Assembly (NCBI GenBank): GCA_021018995.1
Contig: CM037586.1
Location: 147,168,060 to 147,232,059, forward strand
Length of the DNA: 64,000 nucleotides
Source of the DNA: Chloranthus sessilifolius
Taxonomy: Eukaryota > Streptophyta > Magnoliopsida > Chloranthales > Chloranthaceae
Direction: 5' to 3'
Under the pieces are notes generated by a model. It saw nothing but the letters and a program-made list of their open reading frames with translations. It was not told the origin of the DNA and ran no database searches. Of the stretch, positions 9,854 through 64,000 are shown in pieces. Numbering within the stretch: position 1 is the first letter of the stretch; each line of letters starts with the position of its first letter. Both the position numbers and the translations under genes were made by a program.

Positions 9854-10719
9854 CTACGAATCATTTACCGGATCATCTTCCTCTGGTTTGACGAAGAACT
9901 CAATATAAGCAATTCGACTAGGTTGTTGATGACCCCCACCCGCATAATTTTGTGGATGTTGAACACCTGATCTTCCAACAGAAACCAGGTGCTGGATTTT
10001 CAACATCCCACCTCTCCCAATCGTCAATTTACTTCCTCTATTATCCTTCAACACAATGCTAGGAATATTTGAAGTTGTCGCACGGAGAAACTTGTACTTA
10101 TACCTGTACATAGTTAAACAAGAATCAACATAGTTGGATCAAAATAGATGGTGATATAACTGATATATGATCAAAAAATACCTGTAAGAGATCCGCTGAT
10201 CACATTGGAATGCAATTAAAAGATCAGTGTTTGCATAATACAAGAAGTCAATCTGTCAAGAAAGACAAGTGCTTAACTGATGAAGTGGATTGAAGCCTGG
10301 AGACCATATTTGTATAAATTTGCAGTTGCACAGAAATATTGCAAAAGATGTTAGAACATACTTGTAAGTCACCATGTCCTTCACCTCGGAATGTAACTGA
10401 AGGTGGTTCTGGATGTATAAGTATCTGAATGCTTGAACCTGGCCATTCAAGATCGTCAATTGCCTCCTTCAGCATTGAAGACTGGATATGTATTAGTATG
10501 AGTGTATGACCATTTAATGGGACTGAGAATGAAAGGCAAACCATAGTCAGAATAAGACAACTAGCCTGTTTATAATAAGTTCAAAAACAAGATCTTACCT
10601 TAACAGTAAAACTGACTGGTACGTTTCCAATAGGTTCAAAATTGTAGTCCCAGGAGATGGTATCAGGGATCCTAGTCCTGATCTCCGCATATATGCAAGC
10701 ATCTGGTGAATCAACAGAC
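9854..10719 (-). CDS. RAD1: RAD1 exons 4-7
   Basis: Exon 4 (10599-10719) follows a pyrimidine-rich tract and a TTTAG acceptor. It opens with G, completing the split codon of exon 3, then reads [16 protein letters not shown]. Exon 5 (10362-10481) reads [15 protein letters not shown] to GEGHGDLQ. Exon 6 (10182-10252) reads [12 protein letters not shown] to RISY plus AG. Exon 7 (9854-10103) completes Arg224 and ends [11 protein letters not shown] with TAG. The introns are 117, 109 and 78 bp. This half encodes the second clamp domain and an acidic tail. Confidence 0.93.
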
Positions 10720-13700
10720 CTAAACGAAGAAAAGTAAATATGGTTGTAATACTAAACGGTCAGGCTATGGCTACATAAAAAAAGATGATGAATTCTGCCA
10801 TAAAATTTTCATTTTATGGAATGCAATTTTTTTTGCTATGCATCTAAACTAATATGTTTTAGCAACAAACCCAGGTGCATCAAACAAGCATTCACAAAGC
10901 TTTCCCTTGACTAAAAGTAATGACTAATGACACTTCTTGAATAGAAGATAGTAGAGCGATTTCAATTGTCAAATCTGGGATTGAACCTGCAGCCTCAAGG
11001 TTGCCAATATTGTCAAAGAACACCATTCAGCATCCCCTTTTGATCTTTTCAACAGATATAATTCTCTAAGGCTCTGAATGGCAAATACATAGAACATCAT
11101 ATCCAATATAATAATAACTGGGCATGCATTTATACATGATGGATTTCAGGATTGATCAATATACTGGCAAAACATGCAAATGCAAGAACAACCATTAAAC
11201 CTTTTATAATGGAGCAGTTACAAAGGAAACAAATACCAGATTTTCTAATACTCCTCGTCAAGCTGAAATAGGTCTCTGGACTTTCAAAAGCTTACTCACA
11301 GAAGATATTGTCAGTCTTTGGACTCCCTTGATATCTGCGAGTTTGTAAGTCACGCTTGACTTGTTCACGTGGACAACAATTATTTTGGAACATATAATTT
11401 TTTTATCTTACATCCTTTTCACTAAAGGGCGTTTTTTGTGCCAAATGTGAAAACCTATTGGACATGATCACATGAAAGATTAACAAGGATTGAGAAATAA
11501 GAAGTCATAGTCTCTCTCTCTCTCTCATGGACAACTCCTCACTTAACTAAGTTCCGTAAGCGTCCTATTTCCTAGTGCATTCCATTCAAAAGAAACTACT
11601 CCTAAGGCAACACAAAAGACCACACTAACCTAAATATGCCACCCTCACGGCCTTACCCGAAGGGCATCTCCATTTTTTTTGGCTATGTGAGTGAGTGTTA
11701 GTTCTTTCAAATAATGGAGAATACATTACATCGTGTCGAGAGCATACCCTCCTACAGTTCCATTACAGATTAAGAGACCATTTTTCGACTATCGGAATAA
11801 GAAAAGAGGGAAGGCCCGATGTTCTCCTATTAGAGATAGGTTCAAGGGCTTCAAGGACGTTCTTCAAAAGTCAAAACTTTTAAGCTCTGCGAAATGACCT
11901 TGATTTATTGTTTGCTTCACTAAGTTGCTTGCAACACTGGTGTGATTTCTCTGAATACAGGATTTATTTTCCACTCCTTATTTGAAAGAAGTTCCTAGCA
12001 TCTTCTAATTTGGACTTCAACGTTCCAAGGTTTTGGGAAAGGGGGATAGCAAGAGGTGTGTGTGTGTGCCTTCATGTGATCACATGATAGTGATCTGTTC
12101 CATGTTATTCTTATTTCTTCTATTTTGGAGATCTAGCTCCTCGCTCTTAAAGCCACATGTCACTTTACAGGTCAATATGTTTTTTCTGGCCAATAGGAAA
12201 GGCAATACGTTTTTTGCACCTCACCTTTTTCTCGCAAATCTCCATACGTGATCTTCAAGTTATCACGTGATAACTTAAGTCGTGACCTTCCTGTTTGTAT
12301 GCTTGTTGGATCTCTTTGATGATCTATTAAAAACTAGCCCAGGTTTAATTATTATTACTCTCAACAGTTTGCTAACAGCCTGCTAGTTTCTGTGTCCAGC
12401 AGTCTTTTGTTGTCTTGTTGGGTCCTTTTGACGGCCTATTAAAAGCCCACCCAAAATGTCCTTTAATCCTATTAATAGATTTGTTACGAGCTGTTTAACA
12501 GTTTAGCAATAGCTCATTAATAACATCAAATAGGCCTTCATCTCCTCTTATTCCATGCCTCTTGTTCTTCAGAATTGATAATTAAACCACATCAGTTTGT
12601 AAGCTGGAATGAGTAAAGAAAGAATGATCCATACAAGCCCAAATGTGAATCAGTCCATGGCGATTAGTGCAGCAAGTGAATGTATGAGCTGTAAAAACAA
12701 GGTCGAATGGATGACTTCATGAGAGTCAAACATTGTTACAGGATTACAATAATCACCACCTAGTTTTTCATCGGAAGTAAGGAAAACATTGAATTCGCCT
12801 ACTACCAAACCAACATCCAATGATTGGAGCCAATTATTATAAGTGTATTTGTGTTTCACACCATTCTTTTTCTCATCTTCTAGAATATTATATTGTTATG
12901 CCATGTAGGCTCGGGATTAGGATCGGTCCAATGCTATTGCAATGGCCTCATATTCGAGATTGTTCTCTGATGTATTATATAATGCCCATTATTGTAAGAG
13001 AATAATCAACTAGTGAATTACATCACTGTTCATCTAATTCTCCTATCTCTTCTATCGTGTTCTTCAAACTCCATGGTATCAATAGGGTTTTTGGACTAGC
13101 AATCCACTGAGCTCCCACGAGCTCCCTTCATTCCAAATTTTATCCCGATCCTCTGTGGTATGGCAACCTTACCACATAATCTTCAATTTCTTCTGTCCAA
13201 TCTTCATGCCTTAGTTATCGTCAAGGTTGACGCCACAACTCATCCGACGTGGAAATCTCAGATCCGAAATGTTCTGGGCGCCACTGGCTTCCTCCAATAC
13301 ATTGATGAGCTTGAATCTTGTCTGTTGGCTGCCATCATCGATTCCTCTGGTAAGGCCTCTACAAATCCCCAATATACTCAATGGGATCAAATCGATCAGC
13401 GGTTGGTGAGCGCTATTCATGCCCCCATCACACCATCTATTTTGCCATACGTGATCTCCATCAGGTCCTCTCACGCTCTGTTTGAAGCTCTTGAGGTTCG
13501 GCTCAATAGCCCCTCTAGATCTCATATTAAAAAGAAGTCTCAGCTCCAGCAACTGGAGAAAGGGAAATTATCCATGAAAGAATATATTGAGCAAGTTCAA
13601 GCTAATGCTGCTGATGTTGCAGCACCATCGTCTCAAGTCCCTCTACATCTCATATTAAAAAGAAGTCTCAGCTCCAGCAACTGGAGAAAGGGAAATTATC

Positions 13701-16700
13701 CATGAAAGAATATAGTGAGCAAGTTCAAGCTCTTGTTGCTTATGTTGCAGCACCATTGTCTCAAGTCGACGATGAAGATGTGATCCTATATACTCTCAAT
13801 GGACTCTGCGGCCGGCGTCTATGAACCTAGATGACTTCTTCTCCTTACTCATCAGTGAGGATCTCAACCTTGAGCTGGAATCTGACGATCCTGAACCTTT
13901 TAAATCAACCACTGCTCTTGCTGCTGCTCAACATCCTTCTTCTAGAACCCCAGCACCACCAGGTGGGCGTGGGGGACAAGGACCCAATTCCTATGGCGGG
14001 CGTCGTGGTTGCAGACAACAAGATCGCAATGGTGGGCGCTATGGGGGCCGGGGCTTCTGGAATAAAAAACCCCAATCCGTCGATCCTTCATCTCCGAATC
14101 AACCGTCAACTAGGTTCTGCCTGATCTGTGGCCACGCAAACCACTCAACCTCCCGCTGCTAGTACAAAATTGATGCTCCATATCCAGGAACCCCACCATC
14201 TCAACATCAAGCCTTTGCTGCTCACCATAACCTCCCTGATACTAATTGGTACATCGACAGTGGAGCGAGCAACCATGTCACCTCCGATCTTTCTCAATTG
14301 TCGATTCATTCTCCTTATCAAGGTTCAGACGCAGTTACTGTAAGCAATGGTAATGCTCTGCCCATTTCCCATACAGCTTCAGGAATTCTTTCTACACATC
14401 ACAAAAGTTGTCCTCAATAAAAATTTCATGTACCTCAGCTATCTTTCAATCTTTTTTCTGTTCATAAATTTGCAACTGATAACAACCTCATTCTATTATT
14501 TGATTCATCAGGTTGTGTGGTTCAGGATAAAGAATCGAAGAGAACTCTCATCCAGGGCAGTAGCAAAGATGGTCTTTGCCTGCTCCACTCCTCCATTGTC
14601 CACCTTCCATCAACCAAAGCCTTCCTCATGACTCGGAAATCTGCTGCAACATGGCACAGTAGTCTGGGACATCCATCTACTTCCATCTTTCGTTACTAGT
14701 TTCGAATTTTAATATTCCAATTTCCAGTTCCATTTCTATGCATTGTGAATCTTGTAATGTTGGGAAAGCTCACAAGCTTCCTTTTAAAGTGTCTAATTCT
14801 ACGTCACAAGCCCCCTTAGATTTAGTTCATGCTGATGTATGGGGGCCTTCTCCTTTACCATCTGTCAAAGGATTTAAATACTATGTTCTTTACATTGGTG
14901 ATTTTTCAAGATTTTGTTGGTTATATCCTCTTTATGCTAAATCTAATGTTTACCAGTCTTTTCTACATTTTAAAATTTTAGTTGAAACTCAATTTTCACG
15001 TAAAATCAAAGTGTTTCATAGTGATAATGGTGGGGAATTTGTCAACAACAAGATGCTTTCTCTCTTCACCTCTCATGGCATCCTACACCAATGGTTGTGT
15101 CCGCATACGCCTGAACAGAACGGCATTGCTGAGCACAAACATAGACATCTGATCGAAACCACTATTACCCTGTTACACACAGCCTTAGTAGCGATGACTT
15201 TGTAAAAATGATGGTGTGTGATGGATGTTTTATTCTCAAGATATTCAAGAAAGAGACAGAAGATGAGCTATTTAACACAATTGGTATGTTTCCTCATATA
15301 CTTCATGACATGTTTCTTTTAGAAAATCAGATCCCTTTCTTCATTTTAGAGTGCTTATTTGGCTTTATTATTGGGAAGGAGGATCAAGTGACTTCTCTTT
15401 TAGATGCATTAAGCAGTTTCGTGCAGTTAAATCCGAGGAAGTCGAAACCCTCAACGAAAGTTGTCCATCATTTGCTCCATTTCTTTTACTTGAGCATCTA
15501 CCCAAATCTTATATCAGATAATTCCAATAAGAAATCCGAAAGTCCAATACCTGACTCCAAGAACATGAAGAACTCAGTGTCTTCGTTTTGCTACAGTCAA
15601 CAGCCACTAGTAATTCATCAACAACAAGCCATTCCGTGCGCAACAGTGCTTCACCAAATTGGAGTTAAGTTCGAAAAGAGCGATGATCCCTATAGCATTT
15701 TGGACATAAATTTTGATAATGGTTTGATGAAAATTTCACTTCAATCAATTGACGATGGATATAATCCTCTTATTCGAAATCTAATAGCCTTTGAGCAATG
15801 CCACCCAAAGTCCGAAACTTTCGTCACAAGCTACGCTTTGTTTATGTGTCTTATAAAGACATCAAAGGATGTGGAATTACTCCAACAACATGGAATTATT
15901 GAAAATAGAATTGGGAGCAACAAAGAGGTGGCCCTCCTCTTTAACAACCTTGGTAAGCATGCATTTATCAACCATCTTCCTGACATATATAAAGATGTCA
16001 TTTCATACTGTGAAATCAAGAGGCACAAATGGTGGTAATGGCTACTTCTTCTTCTCTGCATGTGGATGCACAGGTACAACTGTTTGCCCATCTCTATGCT
16101 CAATTATTTTTTCTATTTCCGTTTTAAACATTACTTCTTTTCTTGTTTTTGGTTATCTTTGGCAATAAATATTTTGCTTTTTAATAGTTTAAGATGTAGG
16201 TGATCCATACCATCAAAGTCATATATAGATCTCATTTTGAACTACAATATCCTGAAAATGATGTTTTATGGAGATTTGAACCATCACATATGCGGACTTT
16301 AATATCAACCATTGTTTTAAGTGTTAATGGCTGATATTAAAGATCATCAATAGGATGGTTCGAATCCACTTATAGGGCATGTTTCTTTGGGCTGAGCCAC
16401 TTGTCAATGATAGATTACCACTTGGAAAATTTAGATTGATCACAGATATTCACCATATGGTGTGAGATTAAAAGTTTAGCTTTAATAGTGTCAGATCATT
16501 TAAACGCGAGTATGTTGTTTAAATGCCGGTCAAAAACCCTTAAATAATCTCACACCATTAAAATTAGATTTTTTTTCCCGTACCATTGCAGTGTGCCTTA
16601 TCATCATGCCATGTGACACACATCTATAATTAATCTAAGTTGCCCAAGTGGCAATCTATCATCGAAATATGGCTCAGCCCAATGGAATATGTCGATACAT

Positions 16701-22700: not shown

Positions 22701-24550
22701 CATTTTACGGATTCATGATGTTGTGCGGCCCGCGAACTTCTGATGGCCATAACTTTTGATAGAGAACTCCGATTGATTAATATAATATATCGTTTTGGGG
22801 TAGCTCGAGATGATACATCCAATGGGAATGATAAAAAAAGCAAAATTTACTCTTGCGTGCATAGTATGCACGCAAAGCCAAATTAGTTCTTCTCCAGCTG
22901 GGGACTTGAACTTCTCTATTCCGAAAATGGGTTTTTTCACCTAAAAAAAATAGATTTCATATTTGGGGGTTTGACTTGTGGACCATCCCGGACTTCAGGG
23001 TTTGTTTCTTTAGGACCTTAGTACCCGTAATAGCTTAAATTATAACCCTTTTGCCATCTAAACCCTCACCCTATCATCCACCATTAAAACCCAATTCCCA
23101 CTCCTCCAAGCCCTAAAAAACCCAAAAAACCTTAGATTTATATTACCTAATTTCTAAACCCACTAGTGTCTTAACCACTCACTAATCACATCAAACTCTA
23201 TAAATAGAGATCCCCCTTCCTTGTTTAGGACACTTTTCCAAATCTAAAAGGAGAAACTCTACAAAAATTCCTCCTCATTCCATGATTCAAAGCATCCAAG
23301 CCTTAGAAAACCTTAGTTAAAGTTCTCTCATACCACCATTTCCAACCTTTTACTTCCAAACCATAGCAAGTTAGGAACCATCCCTACCCTCTTGTGCTAT
23401 CGGAAGCTCACCGGAGTTAGCATCGACGCGACGATCCGATGAACAGTGCTACAAGGGCTCGAGAGCTCCGACTCTCCCCTCTATTCCTCTACCTTCTTTT
23501 TTGGCTTTTCCTCTATCTTAGGATTTGAGCCGTTACGCCGTCGAAATTTCGGTGTTTGCAGAGAGCTCAATAGGATCGGTGTGCCTTCAAGTAAGAGGAA
23601 GTGCTGCTCATTTTTTATTTTTTATGTACAGTTGGCCATAGTAGAGACCGCTTATGAGCGAGTCAATCGGGTGCTTAACACCTTCCCGATTGATAACCGA
23701 AGTCCTTACCCAAGAGGCTTTAGAACTTCTCCTTGAAATAGGCCCCATTGCATATGTTTTCTCTTATTGCTAACTTTTGTCTATATTTGTGTTTGTTTTT
23801 TTTTCTTACCTATATGATTCCGGATTTTTTTACTTACCCCTATGATTCCGAGCATTTTTTTTGGCCTAGTCACTTGACTGGCCACGTCTTTACTCGCCTG
23901 CCATTTGGCGGGCCTACTTGATAATTAAATTTAAATTCCCGTCATTTACCGCCCAAGACGTTTGGCGGGCCTGCTTGATAAATTAACTTTAAATTCTCAT
24001 CATTTACATTTCCTTACATTCCCGCCTAGTCGCTTGACTGGCCCCGTACTTTTCTTACTACTTGTCATATTTCACCTTTGAACACCGACCTATAATGGCG
24101 GCACGGGACTCGCATAGCCCGGATTAAGATCGGTGGCGAAAGCCCCATTGTTGGACTTAAGCAAACTTCCCTCCCTTAAAATTGAATGCTAAAATGAACC
24201 AAGACGAGACATAATAATTTCGTTTCTCATGGGTAACTTTTTTAAAGGGGGGGAAAAAATAGACAACGATACACCCAAACCGATTCCAAGTAGAGCGACA
24301 ACCCTAGTGGTGATGATCTCGAAAAGAACCACCCCATCCAATATCTAAGAAGGCACTCGTGTTGGAGGTATATAGGGTGGGTAACCAAACTCATCACTAA
24401 GCTTAAAACCTTGGAGAGCGCGTTAGTAGCATCGAATCGACCTTGTATCCCTTAGGCACATAAAGGAGGGACCCAAAAAAGGCTAAAAGAAGAGTCTTGG
24501 GAGGCATTGCCTCAAAAACTCCATTTTTAGCCCAACTCGGATCTACAATT

Positions 24551-24605
<55 letters not shown>

Positions 24606-48600: not shown

Positions 48601-51600
48601 CCGTACTATAGGCCCATGGATTCGTTCATGTATTGGACAAAAAGCTCCAAACAAACTAAATTGAGTGCAATCTCACTGAAAAAATAGAGGCTTGAAAAAA
48701 AATTGCAAAGTTCGTGATATACAATCACATTCCGAGTCAGGTTGTGAAGTCGTCATACTTCAAAAGTATGATTGATACAAGTGCAGAAGCTGGTCCATGA
48801 GTTAAAAAGTCTTCTGCATACGAGATATCTGAGCCCTTACTAAATGATGAGTACAAGGAGATAAGAGCTTATGTGAAGAGTTTTGAGAAAGTATGGGATG
48901 AGAGAGATTACACAATCATGTGCGATGGATGGACCGGTCCACAAGGAAGAATTTGATAAACTTTTTTGTTTACAGTGATGTTGGAATAGTATTTCTGAAA
49001 TCAGTTGATACTTTTTAACACGCGAAGACGGGTGATTACCTCTGTCAACTAATGGATAAGATAGTTGAAGAGGTGGAAAGAAGCGGGGTGCAGGTGGTAA
49101 CAGACAATGCCGCCAATTACAAAGCCGCAGGAAGGCAGTTAATGTTGAAAAGACCTCACTTGTACTGGACTACGTGTGTCGCTCATTTCATGGACCTCAT
49201 TCTTAAGGATTTGGAAAAGAAAAGCAAGTCACAGGCAACTATTCAGAAGGGAAGAACGATTACTTCTTACCTGTACAACAATGACAAGTTGGTGAATTTA
49301 ATGAGAGACTTTACTAAGAACGAGCTGCTCCGGCCTGCGATTACACGGTTTGCAACACAATTTCTAGCCCTATAGAGTTTGGCTAGATATAGGCATGAGC
49401 TGAAAAGTATGGTGTCGTCTGAAGAATGGAGAAAATATGAGTTAGAACTCCCACGATCAAAGAGATCTGCTTGCAATGAAGTTGACCTGATCTACAACCC
49501 CCTGTTTTGGGCAAATGTTGACCACTTGATCGCCGTCACTATCCCGTTGGTGCAAGTGTTGAGGTTGGTAGATGGTGATGAGAAACCAACGATGGGGTAT
49601 GTTTATGAGTCAATGAAAAGGCAAAATTGGTTATTAAAATCAAATGCCCTACAAAATATAAATGATATTGAGTGATTATCGACAAGAGGTGAGATGCACA
49701 AGTTCACTAGTACTTGCATGTTACAGGTATAGTATGCTAAACTGCTTATGTAGTGATTTATATTTATTTATTATTTTTCATATTATTAAGTGTTTTCATA
49801 TACTGATGAGATTGCCCATATTTTATGTATAACACACTACTTGAATCCGGTCTTCCAGTATACGCAACGCTTCGAGTTGAGTGAGGTCGATGAAGTGTAC
49901 AGTAGTTTGCTCAATGTGATCCAATGAATGCTCCCTGAGTTAGCGGACCAAGGCTAAGCCATAAGAGACGTGAGTAATCATACCTTATAACTAATAAGTC
50001 AAATGTCATATGATCTGTTTATTGATATGTGGGTTATTGTATTCCATCTTTGTAGATTGACATGCTCCGCAAGAAATATGGGTCATTTGGGACAAGGTTA
50101 GTGCAATCCCAAATCCAGCACGATAACTCGCTAATTGGTGGATGTGCTATGGAGGTGATAGTCCGATACTGTGGCGGGTTGCAATGCGCATTTTATCGCA
50201 AACATGTTCCTCGTCCAACTATGAGCGGAATTGGAGTACCTTCTCTCTCATTCACATGAAAACAAGGAATAGGATAATTATGGAACGATTAGAAAAGTTA
50301 GTTTATTGCCACTACAACATGCGATTAAGGGATGCAGAGGACCAACCATGGAAAGCAATTATATGAAGTCTTAGTTCATATAATTTTTATTTGATGTAAT
50401 TGACGAGGCATCTACTAATTCATCTATCATATTCTACCTTACGGATAGTGAATATTTAATCCCATCAAATTCGATTATATATTCACGGAGGATGACCCTT
50501 TGAATTAGTGGATCGAAGAGAGAGAAGAGTTAGTGTTGGAAAGTAAGAGCATTGCATGACTAGACAATGCTAAAAGAGAAACGGAGGAGCAGACTTCCCA
50601 ACAACCGAGGCGGAAAAGAAGATTGAATTGTCATTCAGTGGTTAGATCTGATGACGAAATGCAGCCCAATAGTGATAATAACGATGATGGGGGTGATGGT
50701 GGAGGCGATGAAACCCACGTTGGCACTAGTGGTGGAGGGGATGATGTTGATCCCTCTTATTCTTATGGAGGTATTACCGCATGGGATGATAAACCAGTAA
50801 CAATGTTTAACACTCCTACATTTAGAGGTGGAGGGGTTGAAGGAAAAGGAGCGTCAAAATCTTACCAAACACCACCACCACTAGGTCCAAAAGATGATTT
50901 GGGTTATATGACTTCTAGCTTCGGGAGATTTAGTTTTCAAAATAATAAAGATTCAGCAACCAGTAACCTATACTACTAACCTCAACCAACCTACCCCGGG
51001 CCATATGACTTCATTGGTCAAATTTTTGGAGGACCGACCTTTACCTATTACACTGAGTCATATTCGTCACTACTGCCTCAGTTTCAAGGGGGACATATGA
51101 TCATGGGTATCAATATGGCCAACACTATAAGGAAAGCTCGCGCACTGATGATGATGAACACGAGGGCCAAGAACCACCACGCAATTCAATGTGACTTTAA
51201 AGTAAGTTTTACATGTACAATGGACCTTTTAATTTTTTTATCTAGGTTGAAATAAGTTGTTTGACATAGCTTCTTTGACAAACATATATCCAATGGAATC
51301 TTTGGAAAATTACGTTTTATGTTGTAGTAGTACTATTTAAGTGCACTTGCTAAGTTGGTGATTAAGTGGGGATTTAGGATAGTGAATGAGCCAATTGGAA
51401 GAATATCGGTTTTGCATGAATCAGTGGTCAGGGTTGTTATTAATATGATATTCTGATCCACATGTTTTTTTTTTAGTTTGAAAAAGCACAACGAAAACAT
51501 AAGCATCAAATAAGCCTTAAATAAATTTTAAAAATTTTGAAATAACTAGAAAACCATTAAATATAATTTTTCGGATTTTGCTCGTATTTTTTGGGATTTT

Positions 51601-54600
51601 TTTGAAAAAAAAATATGTATCAAACCGATACATTCAATGTATCGGACAATACCCGATACGTATCGTCCTGGAGTGATGGACAATACGTGTCGAAATTCCG
51701 TGATTTTGATCCATGATCTATACTGAAGTATGTGCAGGACCAAGTCAGCGGCCAAACTCTCACTCCAAAACACGAATCTTCTCAAGCAAGGTGTTCTCAC
51801 GAGCATTTCAATCACTCATCCAACGACCATGGAGGCCCTTATAGCGCTTCCTTGAAGCATCAGTAGAACTGAGGACCTCATTCAAAACTCCTTCCAGACG
51901 AAAGCTCATGTTCAAAAGCCGCATCGCGTTCTTGCTCTTTCTAGGCGCTACTGCAAAAATGCAAAAAAAAAAAGAGAAAGAAAAACAAAAAATAAGGATA
52001 TATTTTGATGGCACACACTCCCAAAATGCGGGTCGATCTCCATTCGCTCTGCTTGAGTAATCATGCTAAATTAACCTCGGCGTCGATGTGTACGCTCAAA
52101 GACCTTGAACCCTACCTCGCGTAGGGGCACCCATGACCAATCAAAGTGGGGCAATCAATGTCTCATGAGATTGGGCGCAAAACACCGTTGGATCTTCGCG
52201 CCATTGCTTTACGCCAATCATTAAGTATGGGTCGATCACCCTCCTGCTCGCAGGGCTGCTTGGTTCAATGAGAAACTGGAGCATCATGCACCGTCAATCA
52301 TTTTCATCACCCGGTTATGCCCAGTTATGTCGCTAACCGCTTGAGGACCGATAATTTCAAGTGACGAACAATTACTCGATGATATGGGCTTCCGTCACTC
52401 TCCACTTTTTGTCCCAATTGATGTTTGTGTTTCACGTTGAATGCGACAAATCTGAGAGCGTTCGCCTTGGGTCTCTTCGGATGCCTCTTTCTTTGGTATA
52501 CGATCATTAGTGATCGAATACCAAGGAGGGGCATCTGTAGACACTCAATATTGGCCCAAGGCTCGATTGACCCATACTTGGAGAATGGCGTACTTCCGAG
52601 CTTCCGAAAGCACTTCTCAGACCCTTAGAACCCTTCCCGGATCCTAAGAATCCATTCCGGACCCCTAAAACCCATACCAGACGTTTAGAATCCATTAGAA
52701 CCCTAGGCACCCTTAGGAAGACTTAGAAGATCCTTAGTGAAAGACTCCTGATCCCTGAGTGGTCCCAAAGTCAACCAATGGAGGCTCGAGGCCGCAAAAA
52801 AATTACATTTTCCGGATTCATGATATTGTGCGACCCTCGAACTTCCGAACTTTTGATAGAAAACTCTCATTGATTAATATAATATATTGTTTTGGGGTAG
52901 CTCGAGACGATACATCCAATGGGAATGAGAAAGAAAGCAAAATTTACCCTTGTGTGCATAGTATGCACGCAAAGGAAGCAAGCCTGAACTTCTCTATTCC
53001 GAAAATGGGTTTTTTTACCTAAAAAAATAGATTTCAGATTTGGGGGTTTGACTTGTGGACCATCCCAGACTTCGGGGTTTGTTTCTTTAGGACCCTAGTA
53101 CCCCTAGTAGCTTAAATTATAACCCTTTTTCCATCTAAACCCTCACCCTATCATCCACCATTAAAACCCAATTCCCACTCCTCCAAGCCCTAAAAAAAAA
53201 AAAAAAAAATTAGATTTATATTACCTAATTTCTAAACCCATTAGTGTCTTAACCACTCACTAATCACATCAAACTCTATAAATAGAGACCCCCCCTCCTT
53301 GTTTAGGACACTTTTCCAAATCCAAAAGGAGAAACTCTACAAAAATCCCTCCTCATTCCAAGGTTCAAAGCATCCAAACCTTAAATTTTAGTATCCCTCA
53401 TAGCCATTACCTTTCCATCACTCCTAAGCCTTCAAACCTTAGTTAAAGTTCTCTCATACCACCATTTCCAACCCTTTACTTCCAAACCATAGCAAGTTAG
53501 GAACCATCCCTGCCTTCTTGTGCTATCGGAAGCTCACCGGAGTTAGCATTGATGCGACAATCCGACGAACAGTGCTACAAGGGCCTGAGAGCTCCGACTC
53601 TCCCCTTTATTCCTCTACCTTCTTTTTTGGCTTTTCCACTATCCTAGGATTTGAGCCGTTACGCCGTTGAAATTTTGGTGTTTGCGGAGAGTTCAATAGG
53701 ATCGGTGTGCCTTCGGGCAAGAGGAAGTGCCGCTCATTTTTTATTTTTGATGTACACTTGGCCATAGTAGAGACCGCTTACAAGCGGGTCAATCGGGTGC
53801 TTAACACCTTCCTGATTGCTAACCGAAGTCCTTACCCAAGAGGCTTTGGCGTTGACCGGTGATTCAGAGTCATACATCATACTTCGGTGCTCGCGATATT
53901 GATTTTGGGTATCTCGGGACACCAAAAGCTCCGAGTGGCGACTCCATTTACGAGCGCATCGTCGTGACGGACTCACAAAGTCCACAGTTGCACAGCTCCA
54001 TAAATAATAGTGAGGTGATAAGCTAAGCATTAGAAGAATCCAATAGATTCATTGAGGTTATGAAAATAGTTCACACAAAACAAATAGTTGATAAATCGAT
54101 ATAGCAGAAAGGAACGCAAGAATCAGATTCCTAATATTAACACAAATTACGCTTACTTTTTGACAATCAAACAAGTAGAAACAGTTTATTTGAACTCTGA
54201 ATTATTCAGTCTTATGATCGAGGACACATACAAGATGAGGATGCTCTACAGATTCACAATGGGGATGATCTATCAACCACATATGGCATGTGCATTACAT
54301 GTCTAGATGGGATCATCAGAGTGCGAGGATCCTGGTGGAACAAGGTTCGATTCACAAATCGAATCCTTAACGAGAAGGGTATCTTTAAGGAGGGTAGAAT
54401 GTCATGCACCCATGACACTATGAAGTCTTGTGAGCTGCCCTTGCATAGAATCAATTTCCAAGACAATAAAGATTCACACATCATAACCAAGGTATCAAAA
54501 CTCGGCCAACACTGATAGGTATTGGTAATGCCGAAAACCATATCGGTACTGCCTCAATATCGGCTGATATTATATTGGTATCGAACGATACAGTCATTTT

Positions 54601-56933
54601 TTTATTTTAATTTTTTTTCATAGAGAAAGCAGTTTCGATATCGACGATACCTTACCGGTCCAAAGATCGGCTCGATGCCCGATACCGAGTTAGATACCTT
54701 GATCACAACCATATAAGCCTACTGAATTATTTTTGGTTATTCCGTTAGTTAGATTAGATAGGATCTTCAATTAGTTTAAGTTATGAATATTCATCATTTA
54801 TCGATGTAATCTCTTTCGAAAATCAATGAATAAATAATTTAAGTTTTAGGAGTGAAAACGAGTTGGGTCAACTTGGCGGGTTTGAAGACGCAACCTGGTA
54901 CAAGTCAGGTTTAGGTTAAAAAACCTCGACCTATTGAGCTAGATCAGGTATAAAATCTCAACCTGTTGGTAAACAAGTCAGGTTCAGATTGGGCCCAAAT
55001 CCGAACTGGCACATGCTTATTTTTATATATAAATATATATTATTTTATATATATATATATACATATAATACTTAGGTATATAAGAGTAGCATCTTATATT
55101 TAGCTTATTATATGAAGTAAGTACTAAGCGAGACCTAATCTTTATTCTCAAACCCTAGCCTCGTGAACCCTATTCTTCTCCTTTCCCTCTTCTTCTTCTC
55201 CATTTGAAATCCATAATCTCTGAGCATTTTCACAGCTACTCAAAAGGGAAAAATCACAAGGGTTATATCAAAGCTAGGTACTTCAACTCTTCTCCATTCT
55301 ATCTTCTTCTCCATAGCTTTTTTTCCAAAATAATACAATAAGATAGCCTTTATTCAGTTACTATGGCAAGATGTTTCCAGCCTTTTGGAGTGTCTCATGG
55401 CATTCTTATTTTTCTATCTCTACTATGGTAATAGCCCTTCAGCTATTTGTAGGAAGGCTTTATTTATGCTGACTTTGTTCACCTAATATTAAGTTGAGGT
55501 CCTTGTTCCCCAGTGGAAACATTCTATCTTCTATTGGTTCTTTTTCATTATCCAGCGTGAATTGGATCTTCTATAAGTTTCACAATGAAAATAAGGACAA
55601 ATTTGTCATCAGTTTTTGGGAGGTGTTCATTTTACCTCAATTTTACTAATAAAAGACATTGTTCAGTTCAGCCTCTTCATTCTAAAATCCTATCTAAACC
55701 TGGTAACTATTCTGGTTGGGTGTTTCCGTTCAGGTTCAGGCCCAGGTCTAGCAGGTAGGGTTAAAGTCAGGTCCAGGTTTAGGTTTTTTTAACAGGTCGG
55801 ATACAAGCTCAGGTCAAGGTTTAGAAATTAACATATTGGGTCGGGTTCAGTTCAAGGAATGGAGTTAACAGGTCAGGTTCAGGTTGACCCTAAACCCAAC
55901 CCGTTTGCACCTTTAGTAATCTTCTCAAATAGAACAAAGGAGGTCCTGCTACCTCGAATCAGCCATCTTCTTATCCTTATTCCTCATTTAAATCTTACTT
56001 TAATCTTCAACCGACACGACAAAAGTGGCAACGTAACAATAAGATTAGACTGTTTACTTTGTTTCTCCAAATTTTTGTTCTCTACAGCTTCACAATAGTC
56101 AACAAAAAATAGCGGATGGCTAAACCGATGTTATAATTCACTCTGCTAAATAGTCACAATACTCAGACTACCATGCCAATCAAAATAAACAAATAAATCA
56201 AATTCTTACAGATCGGTCAAATAATCAAAATTCATAATACATATAAATTAATTAATGACTGAAATTATCAAGAGAAGTGACGAGTCTCATCTAAATTCTA
56301 ATTACCAAGCCCAACCAAAATAAAAATATTGGAAAAAAAAAAAAACAGAAAACAAGTTAAATAAAATGGAAACTTACTTGAGGAGGAGCTGCATATCAGG
56401 CCCTGGATAACGAATTTCGATTAAAGGCGCATGCCCCGGCGCAGAAAATATATTGAGGGAATCGACAAAGAGGCCCAAGCTCAGCCCAAATCTCGGGCGG
56501 CCCTCGGCCGCACCATAGTCGTAAACAAGAAAAAGCTGCAAATATTAGAGCTAAAAAAGAAGATTAAAACAGTTAAGGGGCATTCGAGTAAAGAAGCGCG
56601 TGGAATTTAAATACCTCGCGCTTCAGATAGACTTTGGCTTGAAGGCATCCTGTTTCTTCAACGATCAAAATAATGCCGTGTTCAGACAATTCGACGACTG
56701 CATCCTAATAGGAGGAGGAAGAGGAAGAAGAAGCGTAGTTGTTGGACTTGGAAACCCTAGAAATTTATTGTGTCTGTGTGGTTTGGAGAGAGAGAGAGAG
56801 TGAAACTGCCCTAGAAACGAACCTGGTGGCGTTTCCATCGAACGGATGTAAGGGCATCGACCATGCCTTGAACGTTGTCCAGCTGGCACACGAGGTCTGG
56901 TGCGTCTGCTTCAACTTCCGATGAACTCATCAT
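9854..56933 (-). CDS. RAD1: RAD1, 9-1-1 checkpoint clamp subunit (seven exons)
   Basis: This is the Rad1 subunit of the RAD9-RAD1-HUS1 sliding clamp, a nuclear PCNA-like ring loaded at DNA damage to activate the ATR checkpoint. The exons are 56823-56933, 56615-56704, 56378-56535, 10599-10719, 10362-10481, 10182-10252 and 9854-10103. They total 921 nt and encode 306 residues plus TAG. Every intron is GT-AG and the phases agree across each junction. Recognisable stretches, in order, are [111 protein letters not shown] and [14 protein letters not shown]. The length fits Rad1 proteins of about 280-320 residues. There are two adjacent Met codons; the first, at 56933, is chosen and the second is equally possible. 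Intron 3 is about 45.7 kb and full of transposons, while the others are 78-118 bp. The family call is firm; expression is not shown by the sequence. Confidence 0.94.
10722..12649. other. Unique-looking intron sequence
   Basis: AT-rich DNA just upstream of RAD1 exon 4, with a short (TC)n run near 11514-11525. Small open frames here (for example 11695-11883 and 12033-12251) have no recognisable product. I see no terminal repeats. Confidence 0.5.
12650..12837 (-). pseudogene. LINE endonuclease relic, downstream half
   Basis: The minus strand reads [32 protein letters not shown]. This resembles the metal-binding centre of plant L1-type endonucleases (WLVGGDFNVxLxxxEKxGG), with Glu in place of the conserved Asp of GDFN. 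It is continuous in frame with the segment at 19060-19380 once the copia insertion and one copy of its target duplication are removed. It is a short, old fragment. Confidence 0.65.
12838..13073 (+). repeat. 5' LTR of the copia element
   Basis: It aligns along its length with 18816-19054 with scattered substitutions, sharing for example TATAAGTGTATTTGTGTT and GATTGTTCTCT. A TATATAATGCCC box lies near 12975. It begins TATAAG instead of TGTTAAG, so the terminal TG is lost in both LTRs. Confidence 0.88.
13074..13086 (+). other. Primer binding site of the copia element
   Basis: TGGTATCAATAGG directly follows the 5' LTR. It matches the first eight bases of the tRNA-iMet complement TGGTATCAGAGC. 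Confidence 0.7.
13160..14162 (+). pseudogene. copia gag with CCHC knuckle, frameshifted
   Basis: The frame opens [16 protein letters not shown] and continues with a gag (UBN2-like) region, including [10 protein letters not shown] and [16 protein letters not shown] 128-bp tandem duplication (about 13513-13640 and 13641-13768) shifts the frame. A second frame (13821-14162) is Gly/Arg-rich and ends with the knuckle [14 protein letters not shown]. The product would be the structural protein of the retrotransposon particle. Broken. Confidence 0.8.
13513..13768 (+). repeat. 128-bp tandem duplication in copia gag
   Basis: The phrase CTCATATTAAAAAGAAGTCT begins at 13521 and again at 13649. The two units are nearly identical. 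Because 128 is not a multiple of three, the duplication breaks the gag frame. Confidence 0.85.
14240..14430 (+). pseudogene. copia aspartic protease region
   Basis: A frame here reads [18 protein letters not shown], the Ty1/copia protease active site (DSGA followed by H-x-T). It lies between the gag knuckle and the integrase, as in intact copia elements. Downstream it resembles the [13 protein letters not shown] segment, then is frameshifted. Confidence 0.75.
14600..15205 (+). pseudogene. copia integrase, N-terminal and core part
   Basis: [10 protein letters not shown] motif near 14650, followed by [14 protein letters not shown] at about 14745, makes the HHCC zinc finger. The core follows with [21 protein letters not shown] and [13 protein letters not shown], placing the D, D and E catalytic residues. 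The frame then ends at LVAMTL and a stop, exactly where the DUF247 fragment begins. The rest of the integrase (from the usual FWSEA onward) is absent until about 16770. Confidence 0.85.
15208..16038 (+). pseudogene. Captured DUF247 (UPF0481) gene fragment
   Basis: An open frame of 276 codons unrelated to retrotransposons. It begins [13 protein letters not shown] and has [51 protein letters not shown] and [18 protein letters not shown]. These are the conserved blocks of the plant DUF247 family, usually about 400-500 residues with a C-terminal membrane anchor. Here the N-terminal third and the anchor are missing. DUF247 function is mostly unknown; some grass members act in self-incompatibility. 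It lies in the sense orientation inside copia pol and has no stops, whereas the surrounding pol is full of them. Confidence 0.88.
16190..16756. mobile_element. Foldback/MITE-like element inside copia
   Basis: Two inverted arms are visible. Sequence around 16360-16480 (TGATAGATTACCACTTGG...) is repeated inverted at about 16590-16700 (CCAAGTGGCAATCTATCA...). The family also occurs at 5557-6205. It lies between the DUF247 fragment and the resumption of copia pol at about 16770. It is non-coding and its exact limits are not resolved. Confidence 0.65.
16760..17355 (+). pseudogene. copia integrase C-terminus and linker
   Basis: Copia pol resumes with [17 protein letters not shown], the conserved segment after the integrase core. 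It is followed by a long Ser/Pro-rich linker and [11 protein letters not shown], the usual lead-in to the reverse transcriptase. The frame closes at 17355. Confidence 0.8.
17365..18194 (+). pseudogene. copia reverse transcriptase, broken
   Basis: The segments carry [41 protein letters not shown] and [10 protein letters not shown] (active site YVDD), then [17 protein letters not shown]. Several stops (for example after KQPTI and in AEDF) and a frameshift near 17860 disrupt it. Confidence 0.85.
18225..18810 (+). pseudogene. copia RNase H, broken
   Basis: Frames read [18 protein letters not shown] and [19 protein letters not shown] (catalytic Asp in ADW). After a frameshift comes the [14 protein letters not shown] region, then [17 protein letters not shown], the typical copia C-terminus. 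It is immediately followed by the purine tract and the 3' LTR. Confidence 0.85.
18816..19054 (+). repeat. 3' LTR of the copia element
   Basis: Partner of 12838-13073. It follows the purine tract TTGAGGGAGGA and ends TTCA before ATTAT, the target duplication. Confidence 0.88.
19060..19380 (-). pseudogene. LINE endonuclease relic, upstream half
   Basis: The minus strand ends [20 protein letters not shown] followed by SHN. This corresponds to the VYAKC...R..LW region that precedes the GDFN motif in plant LINE endonucleases. It reads straight into 12837-12650 after the copia element is removed. The N-terminal part is not recognisable. Confidence 0.55.
19381..20842. other. Intron sequence with LTR-like segment
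   Basis: About 19500-20100 has the look of a retrotransposon LTR. It has inverted ACCGTGA/TCACGGT motifs near 19637-19680, a TATAAATAGAG box near 19795 and pyrimidine-rich DNA after it. No partner copy or internal region is seen, so a solo or truncated LTR is only a guess. The rest is unremarkable. Confidence 0.35.
21232..21926. mobile_element. Non-autonomous copy of the CGATACGTATCG hAT family
   Basis: The ends CAAGGGTAAAA and TTTTTTGACCCATG are inverted repeats. The flanks CTTTGAAC (21224-21231) and GTTTGAAC (21927-21934) match at seven of eight bases. Both ends carry the palindrome CGATACGTATCG or near copies, as do the large hAT elements at 41151 and 42138. The middle has tandem palindromes based on AGCGGCCGCT. 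No coding capacity. Confidence 0.85.
21375..21660. repeat. Tandem array of AGCGGCCGCT palindromes
   Basis: Units of roughly 110 bp combine AAGTTAGCGGCCGCTAAC, its variants with GATATC, and A/T runs. At least three units are visible. Each unit can fold on itself. Confidence 0.75.
22207..22452 (+). other. Element B primer site and internal start
   Basis: TGGTATCAGAGCC at 22209-22221 is the primer binding site. The following 230 bp contains a short frame with a helical look ([13 protein letters not shown]) that may be the start of a gag-like protein. It is cut by the Tat-like LTR at 22453. Confidence 0.6.
22453..23735 (+). repeat. 5' LTR of the Tat-like element (3' end lost)
   Basis: It begins TATAGACACTCAAAATTGG and aligns with 52536-53845, including CTCTATAAATAGAGA near 23198 (TATA box) and GGGTGCTTAACACCTTCC near the end. 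After GAGGCTTTA it diverges from the 3' copy. About 150 bp present in the 3' LTR, and the primer site, are missing here. Confidence 0.82.
23736..25090 (+). other. Tat-like element untranslated leader
   Basis: Non-coding DNA with repeated phrases such as GCCTAGTCNCTTGACTGGCC and TTTGGCGGGCCT. It also has a (TA)n run at 24552-24602 and a GCGTGCATATTATGCACGC palindrome near 24612 (a related palindrome occurs in the LTRs). It ends in A-rich sequence before the LINE. No gene is seen. Confidence 0.5.
24552..24602. repeat. (TA)n microsatellite
   Basis: A pure TA run of about 50 bp in the leader of the Tat-like element. Confidence 0.95.
25224..25301 (+). pseudogene. RanBP2-type zinc finger remnant
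   Basis: In the frame starting at 25176, residues 17-42 read [20 protein letters not shown] followed by CHRLGC. This fits the RanBP2 finger W-x-C-x2-C-x3-N-x6-C-x2-C, with the last Cys replaced by Leu. Such fingers occur in plant RNA-binding proteins and are not a usual LINE or gypsy domain. It could be a captured host exon at the 5' end of the LINE. The frame stops at 25403. Confidence 0.5.
25358..27588 (+). pseudogene. LINE ORF1-like region, broken
   Basis: Successive short frames without strong motifs lie ahead of the endonuclease. One stretch ([10 protein letters not shown], then [20 protein letters not shown]) resembles the DUF4283-like N-terminal part of plant LINE ORF1 proteins. Several stops separate the frames. 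Assignment rests mainly on position. Confidence 0.5.
27585..28360 (+). pseudogene. LINE endonuclease domain, broken
   Basis: It opens near 27590 with MLSWNMRGI, then ITLQETK, the metal-binding Glu motif. [32 protein letters not shown] and finally VSDHRPLLL with the catalytic His follow. This is the order of apurinic-type endonucleases that nick the target for LINE insertion. Stops occur after ETK, near 27740 and near 28010. Confidence 0.82.
28450..30126 (+). pseudogene. LINE reverse transcriptase, broken
   Basis: Motifs in order are [112 protein letters not shown] (active site YADD) and [10 protein letters not shown]. Breaks lie near 29000, 29435 and 29720. The order and spacing fit plant L1 elements. 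Confidence 0.9.
30127..31186 (+). pseudogene. LINE C-terminal region with zf-RVT domain
   Basis: The frame at 30515-31186 reads [35 protein letters not shown] and [19 protein letters not shown]. This is the zf-RVT zinc-binding domain found downstream of reverse transcriptase in plant LINEs (C-x2-C...H-x3-H-C). It ends [14 protein letters not shown]. The part before 30515 is frameshifted. Confidence 0.85.
31217..31581. mobile_element. hAT-type MITE (perfect TSD GTGCTGGC)
   Basis: A 365-bp element with inverted ends TAGGGTTGTCAATGGG and CATTGACAGCCCTA. It is flanked by identical GTGCTGGC at 31209-31216 and 31582-31589. The inside is rich in GGGCCGGGTT-like phrases and has no coding capacity. 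It is inserted in the LINE 3' untranslated region. Confidence 0.93.
31790..34145 (+). pseudogene. Tat-like gag polyprotein, broken
   Basis: A Pro-rich N-terminal part with a tandem repeat near 31985-32150 leads to a retrotransposon gag domain (32971-33582). It contains [34 protein letters not shown] and [15 protein letters not shown] second frame (33525-34145) continues to [15 protein letters not shown], the CCHC-like motif of this lineage, and [10 protein letters not shown]. Stops and a frameshift near 33580 break it. Confidence 0.85.
31985..32150 (+). repeat. Short tandem repeat in the gag N-terminal region
   Basis: About five units of roughly 30-36 bp follow the pattern CCCATTTTCCCTCCAC, CACCCAAAATACA. 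They encode a Pro-rich peptide in one frame. Confidence 0.7.
34298..35260 (+). pseudogene. Tat-like spacer with WP repeats and aspartic protease
   Basis: The frame at 34298-34675 contains three tandem copies of a unit of about 22 residues built on INHVWPNF and [19 protein letters not shown] phrases. After a break, the frame at 34890-35246 carries the protease: [19 protein letters not shown], with DNGS at the active site, then [14 protein letters not shown](S/T) is usual in the Tat and Athila lineages. Confidence 0.8.
35277..36640 (+). pseudogene. Tat-like protease end and linker to RT
   Basis: [20 protein letters not shown] follows the protease and is a conserved element of this lineage. The region to about 36640 is a linker with many stops. 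It includes a G-patch-like stretch near 35620-35660 and acidic segments. Confidence 0.65.
36650..37450 (+). pseudogene. Tat-like reverse transcriptase, broken
   Basis: [16 protein letters not shown] lead-in sequence near 36705 precedes [60 protein letters not shown] and [12 protein letters not shown] (active site YVDD). [20 protein letters not shown] follows. Stops follow SRYN and VNL, and a one-base shift lies near 37425. Confidence 0.88.
37450..37945 (+). pseudogene. Tat-like RNase H, broken
   Basis: [20 protein letters not shown] connection sequence, then the frame 37670-37942 with [38 protein letters not shown] and [15 protein letters not shown]. This is the ordinary gypsy RNase H following reverse transcriptase. 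Confidence 0.82.
38040..38640 (+). pseudogene. Second (archaeal-type) RNase H of the Tat lineage
   Basis: [20 protein letters not shown] near 38100 gives the catalytic [22 protein letters not shown] supplies the Glu, followed by [18 protein letters not shown] and [15 protein letters not shown] with the last Asp. The domain between RNase H and integrase is the hallmark of Tat/Ogre elements. A frameshift falls just before TEYEA. Confidence 0.85.
38740..39540 (+). pseudogene. Tat-like integrase, broken
   Basis: The zinc finger is formed by [20 protein letters not shown] and CYKCQEH. The core has [19 protein letters not shown] (Asp), [14 protein letters not shown] (Asp) and, after a stop, [10 protein letters not shown] (Glu). 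The frame at 39323-39538 continues [28 protein letters not shown]. Confidence 0.88.
39541..41142 (+). other. Tat-like integrase end and 3' untranslated region
   Basis: Traces of the integrase C-terminal part continue to about 39830. Below that is purine-rich DNA with recurring GTGAAAACCTGAAAGGGC and GGGTAAAAAG phrases, common between pol and the 3' LTR of this lineage. Minus-strand hydrophobic frames here are antisense of the A-rich tracts. Confidence 0.6.
41990..42137. repeat. GTGTAATTGATGTGTCAC array, left part
   Basis: Direct and inverted copies of phrases like GTGTAATTGATGTGTC and GTCATGGGGTATGTGAC. The array continues at 47003-47110 on the other side of the inner hAT element. The inner element therefore landed inside this array. 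Confidence 0.75.
42684..45694 (-). pseudogene. hAT-like transposase of the inner element, broken
   Basis: It starts [19 protein letters not shown] at 45694 with a BED-type zinc finger (CNLCGKK, then [12 protein letters not shown]) that would bind DNA. Next come [20 protein letters not shown] (DUF659-type region), [37 protein letters not shown], and the hAT dimerisation region with [10 protein letters not shown] and [14 protein letters not shown] near 43560-43750. The gaps near 43800-44100 may be introns. Stops and shifts separate the parts. The C-terminal tail is acidic and Gly-rich. Confidence 0.85.
45840..46420. repeat. AT-rich tandem arrays in the inner hAT element
   Basis: Two arrays are seen. 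The first has TATTTGATATTATTATAATTT units to about 45990. The second has TTATATGTGACCCATATT units at about 46040-46270, in both orientations. The second is comparable to the GTGTAATTGATGTGTCAC units around 41990-42137 and 47003-47110 in the outer element. Confidence 0.7.
47100..47760. repeat. AT-rich tandem array in the outer hAT element
   Basis: About a dozen units of roughly 50-57 bp contain AGAATAATATCAAATAAA and AAATGTAATCTAATATTTT. A shorter related array (TATTTGATATTATTATAATTT) is at about 45840-45990 in the inner copy, in the opposite orientation. It lies upstream of the transposase start. Confidence 0.8.
47836..50980 (+). pseudogene. hAT-like transposase of the outer element, broken
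   Basis: It is the plus-strand counterpart of the inner transposase. The start ATG at 47835 is separated from the BED finger (about 48051-48210, CKLCGKK...[12 protein letters not shown]) by a 204-bp MITE. Then follow [51 protein letters not shown] (catalytic region), [32 protein letters not shown] and [20 protein letters not shown]. After probable introns come [19 protein letters not shown] and [14 protein letters not shown]. An in-frame TAG in the finger region and several shifts break it. Confidence 0.87.
47847..48050. mobile_element. MITE inserted just after the transposase start codon
   Basis: The inverted ends TAAGGATCAAAATTTC and GAAATTTTGATCCTTG enclose 204 bp rich in CCGAAATTTCGG palindromes. 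The flanks are identical ATGTGGAC at 47839-47846 and 48051-48058. Comparison with the inner copy shows the uninterrupted gene would read through this point. Ends and duplication length resemble the larger family (CAAGGGTCAAAAT), so it may be a relative. Confidence 0.93.
51724..52535 (+). other. Tat-like element 3' untranslated region and purine tract
   Basis: This continues the Tat-like 3' region after the hAT insertion. No supported gene; the minus-strand frames at 51808-52014 and 52325-52534 have no recognisable product. The purine tract AAGGAGGGG at 52523-52531 precedes the 3' LTR. Confidence 0.6.
52536..53994 (+). repeat. 3' LTR of the Tat-like element
   Basis: It begins TGTAGACACTCAATATTGG after the purine tract and ends TTGCACA before GCTCC. 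A TATAAATAGAGA box is near 53277. Its last 150 bp (including GAGTGGCGACTCC) is not present in the 5' copy. A short segment near 53385-53440 is present only here. Confidence 0.82.
54000..54399 (+). other. Element B internal end and purine tract
   Basis: A small amount of element B sequence with a 72-codon frame of no recognised product. It ends in AAGGAGGGTAGAA just before the 3' LTR start TGTCATG. Confidence 0.55.
54488..54701. mobile_element. MITE with CAAGGTATC ends (TSD ATCATAAC/ATCACAAC)
   Basis: A 214-bp non-coding element. Its ends CAAGGTATCAAAACTCGG and CCGAGTTAGATACCTTG are inverted repeats. The 8-bp flanks at 54480-54487 and 54702-54709 match at seven positions. The ends resemble the CAAGGGTCAAAAT family. 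Confidence 0.85.
54847..55915. mobile_element. Non-autonomous hAT-like insertion
   Basis: The inverted ends TAGGAGTGAAAACGAGTTGGG (left) and CCCAACCCGTTTGCACCTTTA (right) interrupt the element B LTR, whose flanking sequence matches the other LTR. The body has many CAGGTTCAGGTT phrases and no transposase. A target duplication is not clear. Confidence 0.65.
56044..56377. other. Intron 3 start region of RAD1
   Basis: AT-rich DNA between element B and the exon 3 donor site. I see nothing else in it. Confidence 0.5.
56378..56933 (-). CDS. RAD1: RAD1 exons 1-3
   Basis: Exon 1 (56823-56933, 37 codons) ends RWKRHQ before a GT donor. Exon 2 (56615-56704, 30 codons) begins [10 protein letters not shown]. 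Exon 3 (56378-56535, 158 nt) runs from [17 protein letters not shown] to [10 protein letters not shown] plus AA. The introns between them are 118 and 79 bp. Exon 3 ends in phase 2 with AA before a GTAAGT donor at 56377. It needs a G from the next exon to complete Lys120, and the exon at 10719 supplies it. This half encodes the first PCNA-like domain. Confidence 0.93.
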
Positions 56934-63985: not shown

Positions 63986-64000
63986 CTAGAGAAGGACCCC

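What the first reader, a model, noticed from the sequence alone, without database searches (positions are those of the whole stretch)
9854..56933. RAD1 checkpoint gene with a 45.7-kb transposon-filled intron
Seven exons on the minus strand join in frame into a 306-residue Rad1. Exon 3 ends in phase 2 (AA before GTAAGT at 56377) and the next exon, 45.7 kb away, supplies the missing G after a TTTAG acceptor at 10720. Five other introns are 78-118 bp. The gene stays open while the transposons around it have decayed, so it is likely still under selection. This makes one of the core checkpoint genes dependent on splicing across a 45-kb nest of repeats.
Basis: partly seen in the sequence, partly recalled or inferred. 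Interest (0 to 1): 0.88.

Follow-up and report, generated by a model that had tools for sequence, protein, structure and literature searches.

The report
RAD1 gene with giant transposon-filled intron
A flowering plant's only detectable copy of the DNA-damage checkpoint gene RAD1 looks intact but has one 45.7-kb intron, about 91% of it built by mobile elements landing inside one another; this is real, but introns of this kind are already known from related plants.

Summary
Seven minus-strand exons join into a 306-aa Rad1; introns are 118, 79, 45,658, 117, 109 and 78 bp, and the exon 3/4 codon is split AA|G. The protein matches Pfam Rad1, is 87% identical to avocado Rad1, and aligns to 25 plant relatives without a gap at the junction. 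All 7 matches in its 2.17-Gb genome lie here.

The intron grew by insertion. A copia element (12838-19054) and an older LTR element (20848-56038) each sit between perfect 5-bp target-site duplications. A gypsy element with its own duplication (22453-53994) lies inside the older one, with LINE pieces and a long inverted repeat. Without copia element and older nest, 4.25 kb remains. This argues strongly against a misjoin or split gene. The four retroelements identified read antisense to RAD1. The junction itself is untested: no RNA data.

The kind is known: long TE-filled introns are reported in Chloranthus, magnoliids and ginkgo, and MSH1 introns reach 101 kb. Myosin loci in this genome look similarly stretched. 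Side finding: a host DUF247 gene piece inside the copia element. Interest is modest.

The parts
56823..56933 (-). RAD1 exon 1 (ATG at 56933), 111 nt
   Evidence: genome protein search aligns residues 1-37 here
56615..56704 (-). RAD1 exon 2, 90 nt
56378..56535 (-). RAD1 exon 3, 158 nt, ends in phase 2 at AA|GTAAGT
10720..56377 (-). RAD1 intron 3, 45,658 bp
   Evidence: internal anatomy
10599..10719 (-). RAD1 exon 4, 121 nt
10362..10481 (-). RAD1 exon 5, 120 nt
10182..10252 (-). RAD1 exon 6, 71 nt
9854..10103 (-). RAD1 exon 7 with stop codon, 250 nt
12838..19054 (+). Copia-order LTR retrotransposon, antisense to RAD1: LTRs about 235 bp (92% identical), PBS TGGTATCA at 13074, purine tract before 18816, integrase before RT, target-site duplication ATTAT at 12833-12837 and 19055-19059
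15183..16772 (+). Block of a host DUF247 gene carried inside the copia element: 91.7% identical (BLAST, gaps counted) to a locus on contig C15; open frame 15145-16035
20848..56038 (+). Older LTR retrotransposon with later insertions nested in it: LTR1 20848 to about 22206 and LTR2 54400-56038, alignable only in pieces; PBS TGGTATCAGAGC near 22208; purine tract before 54400; target-site duplication ATAAG at 20843-20847 and 56039-56043
22453..53994 (+). Gypsy-order LTR retrotransposon nested in the older element: LTRs 22453-23721 (cut short) and 52536-53994; purine tract before 52536; gag, RNase H and integrase pieces at 32863-39226; target-site duplication GCTCC at 22448-22452 and 53995-53999
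25584..31183 (+). LINE coding pieces nested in the gypsy element (weak DUF4283 below its cut-off, RVT_1, zf-RVT); outer ends not fixed
42664..51221 (.). Long inverted repeat: arms 42664-45683 and 48056-51221, 76-77% identical, with tandem repeats between them; class not determined

Best explanation
This is the functional, probably single-copy RAD1 gene of a magnoliid-like flowering plant. Its third intron, at a position shared by other flowering plants, grew from about 4 kb to 45.7 kb by successive insertion of retrotransposons antisense to the gene. Shown: intact exons and splice sites, family identity, no second copy found, and target-site duplications indicating insertion into one locus. 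Inferred: Pol II transcribes through the nest; the repeats stay silenced; factors such as IBM2/EDM2 suppress poly(A) sites inside it; and the spliceosome joins 56378 to 10719 as an ordinary GT-AG intron, so that a normal Rad1 enters the 9-1-1 clamp.
For: Gene model and phases. Family match. 87% identity and full coverage to Persea. No gap at the junction in 26 plant rows. Constraint: 1 departure in 119 invariant columns, and that residue (I for S in NIPSIVLK) is shared with the Magnolia sinica protein P0216, which was not in the alignment. Single copy: 7 of 7 genome matches are the seven exons here. Three perfect 5-bp duplications; mean chance match of two intronic 5-mers is 0.0013, or 0.027 if each end may slide by 2 bp. 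The age order fits the nesting: K = 0.20 for the outer LTR pair, 0.072 for the gypsy inside it. Conserved intron position: of 7 N-terminal fragments read, 3 (Helianthus, Trifolium, Mucuna) leave the Rad1 sequence right after K120, as if reading into an intron, and 4 go on into exon 4; of 5 C-terminal models read, 3 (Nelumbo, Ananas, Phtheirospermum) start being Rad1 at exon 4. The exon 3 donor scores third of the gene's six. A passage in PMC5364540 says IBM2 and EDM2 prevent ectopic 3'-end processing in atypically long introns.
Against: No RNA evidence was available. The intron carries 45 AATAAA and 33 ATTAAA on the RAD1 sense strand, and 11 of 2413 GT sites score at least as well as the true donor, with no depletion against a dinucleotide model (11 against 12.5 +/- 3.4); premature ends or cryptic exons are therefore possible. 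The window protein is further than Persea's from 17 of 24 other rows, equal in 3 and nearer in 4 (rows are related, differences small). In C. spicatus expression declines when intron length exceeds 40 kb (passage; it does not say whether per intron or per gene). A passage in PMC5364540 suggests that over 20 kb may exceed what Arabidopsis handles in one T-DNA case. The donor weights were recalled, not fitted.
Confidence: 0.88

Rival explanations
1. The gene is cis-spliced, but most transcripts end or are mis-spliced inside the nest, so full RAD1 mRNA is rare and the gene is a weak allele.
For: Many sense-strand poly(A)-like hexamers; cryptic donors not depleted; expression drops above 40 kb of intron in C. 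spicatus (passage).
Against: The outer element is old (K about 0.20), yet the coding sequence shows little sign of relaxation: 1 departure in 119 invariant columns, and distances to other rows only slightly above those of Persea.
Confidence: 0.2
2. The gene is broken in two: exons 1-3 and 4-7 are now separate transcription units, joined by trans-splicing or dead.
For: The distance of 45.7 kb, and the lack of transcript evidence.
Against: Both halves stay intact and conserved, no other copy was found, and the match to human RAD1 needs both halves (residues 8-243).
Confidence: 0.04
3. The 45.7-kb distance is an assembly misjoin of a short-intron gene with unrelated repeats.
For: Repeat-rich regions are where assemblies fail.
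Against: The window has no N and lies within a 187-Mb contig. Perfect target-site duplications on both sides of the copia and outer elements link the exon 3 flank to the exon 4 flank step by step.
Confidence: 0.02

Closest known systems
Long introns of Chloranthus and magnoliids (PMC8626473, PMC7917104; passages read)
   Same: In C. spicatus LTR elements are named the main contributor to long introns while exon structure is conserved, and expression is discussed for intron lengths over 40 kb; some M. biondii genes are said to have exceptionally long introns.
   Different: Those are genome-wide statistics; RAD1 is not in the passages read, and no element-by-element nesting is shown in them.
MSH1 expansion in green plants (PMC10487979; passages read, part of the abstract among them)
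   Same: A DNA-repair gene enlarged by TE-filled introns; longest intron 101,025 bp (V. planifolia); gene over 50 kb also in Magnolia officinalis and Liriodendron chinense.
   Different: MSH1 has many long introns in many clades; here one of six introns is long, in a different gene.
Ginkgo long introns (PMC5118899; passages read)
   Same: 16,939 introns over 20 kb (12.45%), attributed to TE insertion.
   Different: A gymnosperm with a far larger genome.
Heterochromatic introns handled by IBM2/EDM2/AIPP1 in Arabidopsis (PMC5364540, PMC10241880; passages read)
   Same: TE or T-DNA sequence inside an intron of an active gene, read through and removed.
   Different: Chromatin state and dependence on these factors are untested here, and 45 kb exceeds the plant introns mentioned in the passages read (at least 17 kb spliced; over 20 kb not suppressed).

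Membership tests
Rad1 (PF02144) checkpoint clamp subunit | Match to the Rad1 profile above the curated cut-off | tested here: met
   85.2 bits against a cut-off of 24, profile 3-232 of 257
Rad1 (PF02144) checkpoint clamp subunit | Full length, conserved residues kept, no missing exon | tested here: met
   26-row plant alignment ungapped at the junction; 1 departure in 119 invariant columns
Rad1 (PF02144) checkpoint clamp subunit | Assembles with Rad9 and Hus1 and acts in the DNA-damage response | not testable with these tools
   Inferred from family identity only
Long TE-expanded intron | Length made up by identifiable insertions with target-site duplications | tested here: met
   41,408 of 45,658 bp (90.7%) lies in two insertions with perfect duplications
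Long TE-expanded intron | Spliced out of mature mRNA | not testable with these tools
   No RNA reads available
Copia LTR retrotransposon (12838-19054) | LTRs, PBS, purine tract, integrase before reverse transcriptase, target-site duplication | tested here: met
   rve at 14663-15202, RVT_2 at 17820-18191; ends and duplication
Gypsy LTR retrotransposon (22453-53994) | LTRs, purine tract, gag, RNase H before integrase, target-site duplication | tested here: met
   gag 32863-33579, RNase H 37580-37939, integrase 38624-39226; duplication
Gypsy LTR retrotransposon (22453-53994) | Reverse-transcriptase domain and primer-binding site | tested here: inconclusive
   Among the 40 of 47 frames of 120 codons or more that were scanned, the reverse-transcriptase matches belong to the LINE, the copia element or elements outside the intron; no PBS seen after the cut-short LTR1
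Outer LTR element (20848-56038) | Superfamily-defining pol domains | tested here: inconclusive
   LTR pair, PBS and target-site duplication found; no long frame in its two remaining internal stretches was assigned a domain

The most novel reading that the evidence does not exclude
The heterochromatic nest makes the genome's only RAD1 a read-out of transposon silencing: when silencing falls, transcripts end inside intron 3 and checkpoint (9-1-1) capacity drops. This would resemble IBM1, called a heterochromatin-sensing demethylase in the title of PMC11265718 (title and start of abstract seen); that its sensor is an intron is recalled.
Probability: 0.05. Interest if true: 0.7.

Novelty: new member of a known kind. 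Interest (0 to 1): 0.27.

Why it matters
It is a clean, datable example of a single-copy genome-stability gene tolerating a roughly tenfold growth of one intron through antisense retrotransposon insertions. Because the nest is resolved by target-site duplications, it gives a concrete test of whether plants splice a 45-kb intron efficiently and depend on silencing to do so. RAD1 belongs to the 9-1-1 clamp; rice lacking its partner HUS1 shows ectopic interactions between non-homologous chromosomes (PMC4046934, passages). Beyond that it is ordinary for this kind of genome.

Tried and rejected
Considered and rejected: a missing exon at the junction (none against 25 plant relatives); a second RAD1 (none; the Pfam-profile search found 0, but it also missed this gene, so it says nothing); selection against decoy donors in the intron (no depletion); an RNA gene in the window (0 Rfam matches at gathering score). 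One recursive-splice-like site at about 49272 was not tested against chance.

Not resolved: the ends of the LINE and the class of the long inverted repeat; whether other copies of the copia/DUF247 join exist (dna search did not complete); whether relatives share the insertions (I had no plant genome other than the window's own). Of 47 frames of 120 codons or more, 40 were scanned against Pfam and 7 were not. A plasmid search with the exon 1-3 stretch (56378-56933) gave no match and is uninformative. A search for papers holding RAD1, checkpoint, long intron and transposon returned 0; the search with RAD1, 9-1-1, intron, plant and alternative splicing listed 5, and no title or abstract start shown names this case. 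I make no claim about print beyond these searches.

Full report
What was checked. All seven exons, the phase-2 break at AA|G and the intron lengths are as stated. The spliced protein is 306 residues and matches Pfam Rad1 and solved human RAD1 (one single-residue gap at S121 in that distant alignment). It is 87% identical to an avocado protein over its whole length, the best of 399 hits (120 listed). In an alignment of 26 sequences (the window plus 25 hand-picked plant hits) the join between exons 3 and 4 falls at K120/S121 with no gap in any row, and of those 25 only avocado shares a one-residue insertion in YGAAEG. The C-terminal half has a Magnolia sinica protein as its top hit (88%), and the genome is 2.17 Gb.

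Is it a live gene? The protein departs from 1 of 119 columns that the other 24 rows keep invariant; those rows themselves range from 0 to 9 departures (25 of 26 rows used, truncated P0110 dropped). The one departure, I in NIPSIVLK, is also in the Magnolia protein. Its distance to 24 other rows is larger than avocado's in 17, equal in 3 and smaller in 4, by a few residues. A protein search of the whole genome gave 7 matches, all seven in this window and together covering residues 1-306. The tool scores only its best candidates, so a very diverged copy could be missed.

Is the intron position real? Seven N-terminal fragments from other plants were read: three (Helianthus, Trifolium, Mucuna) leave the Rad1 sequence immediately after the residue matching K120, while four continue into exon 4. 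Of five C-terminal models read, three (Nelumbo, Ananas, Phtheirospermum) become Rad1 at the first residues of exon 4; the Citrus and Magnolia ones start earlier, within exon 3 (proteins picked by hand from the 95 and 120 listed hits). My reading is that these are retained-intron or truncated models showing the same, older intron position.

Anatomy of the intron. Self-comparison, domain searches (40 of 47 long frames) and inspection of element ends give a nested history. (i) A copia-order element, 12838-19054, has LTRs 92% identical over 235 positions, a primer-binding site, a purine tract, and the duplication ATTAT on both sides. (ii) An older LTR element, 20848-56038, has LTR pieces 82.5% identical over 292 aligned positions, a primer-binding site near 22208, and the duplication ATAAG on both sides; its end is 339 bp from exon 3. 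(iii) Inside it lies a gypsy-order element, 22453-53994, with LTRs 93% identical over 1,232 positions and the duplication GCTCC. (iv) Inside that lie LINE coding pieces (25.6-31.2 kb) and a long inverted repeat (42.7-51.2 kb, arms 76-77% identical). The copia element and the older nest make up 41,408 of 45,658 bp; 4,250 bp remains, and may hold further old insertions. Pairwise K values are 0.20 (outer), 0.086 (copia) and 0.072 (gypsy), so the order of ages agrees with the nesting. At 1.51e-9 per site and year, the rate quoted in PMC8626473, these mean about 67, 29 and 24 My; at 1.3e-8 (recalled) about 8, 3.3 and 2.8 My. Absolute dates are therefore loose.

Why this settles contiguity. The duplication around the copia element ties 10720-12837 to 19055-20847, and the duplication around the outer element ties 19055-20847 to 56039-56377. 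Exon 3 and exon 4 thus flanked one intron before the insertions. The chance of a 5-mer match is about 0.0013 per pair, or 0.027 if each end may slide by 2 bp. I located the ends partly by eye, so the looser figure is the fair one.

How it probably works. The three LTR elements and the LINE lie on the plus strand, antisense to RAD1. With four elements this is suggestive only. It would spare RAD1 the elements' own sense-strand poly(A) signals, but AATAAA and ATTAAA are about as common on the sense strand (45 and 33) as on the antisense strand (43 and 31), and strong donors are not depleted. Passages of PMC5364540 and PMC10241880 describe IBM2 and EDM2 suppressing premature 3' ends in such introns in Arabidopsis. 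That this happens here is inference; chromatin and RNA were not available.

How unusual it is. PMC8626473 (passages) reports long introns as prevalent in Chloranthales and magnoliids, and discusses intron lengths over 40 kb. PMC7917104 (passages) speaks of genes with exceptionally long introns in M. biondii. PMC5118899 (passages) counts 12.45% of ginkgo introns above 20 kb. PMC10487979 (passages) shows the repair gene MSH1 with introns up to 101,025 bp, and the gene over 50 kb in Magnolia officinalis and Liriodendron. In this same genome a myosin-head profile search (79 matches listed, 65 of 160 candidates scored) shows six loci with both early and late motor pieces. Their matched motor regions span about 14, 22, 25, 37, 49 and 83 kb, and one has 33 kb between profile positions 131 and 150, which would be one intron or two around a tiny exon. 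Whether all six are intact genes was not checked. RAD1 is thus at the long end, not apart.

Side finding. The copia element carries a 1,590-bp block (15183-16772) of a host DUF247 gene: 91.7% identical by BLAST, gaps counted, to a locus on contig C15 that keeps a 414-aa frame, and sharp at both ends. Its divergence from that locus (K 0.059; 0.067 in the non-coding part) is near that of the element's LTRs (0.086, 235 positions), as expected if the piece was picked up about when this copy inserted. A simple count gives dN/dS 0.58 (12 synonymous, 30 non-synonymous differences), which does not show that the piece is itself under selection.

Noticed in passing
window 15183-16772 (+): A piece of a host DUF247 gene (about the C-terminal two thirds, stop and 3' flank with a palindromic repeat) sits inside the copia element, 91.7% identical by BLAST to G000 C15:9.4908-9.4924 Mb, in an open frame of 297 codons. 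In my reading it replaces copia sequence between integrase and the SH3-like region. All 4 coding indels against the C15 gene are multiples of three; dN/dS 0.58.
   Followed up: partly
G000 C2, about 43.935-43.936 Mb (in L021): A third DUF247 copy, 97% and 89% identical in two pieces to the C15 gene; the window's copia element matches this 9.9-kb stretch only in the DUF247 block.
   Followed up: partly
window 42664-51221: An 8.6-kb structure with about 3-kb inverted arms only 76-77% identical, nested in a gypsy element whose LTRs are 93% identical; the arms are more diverged than their host element, and no clear target-site duplication was found.
   Followed up: partly
window 57016-57155: A repeat about 70% identical to 31437-31581 lies about 80 bp upstream of the RAD1 start codon, next to TATAAA-like motifs, so the core promoter abuts repeat-like DNA.
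   Followed up: no
G000 C9:66.80, C13:42.25, C2:80.32, C2:141.30, C14:96.89 Mb: Myosin-head fragments with the same paired pieces (profile about 25-77 and 70-130) recur at these five scattered places, as if copied by a mobile element.
   Followed up: no
window 61659-63998 (-): A copia element just upstream of RAD1 keeps long open frames (432-codon RT, SH3-like and integrase pieces), so it looks younger than the intronic elements.
   Followed up: no
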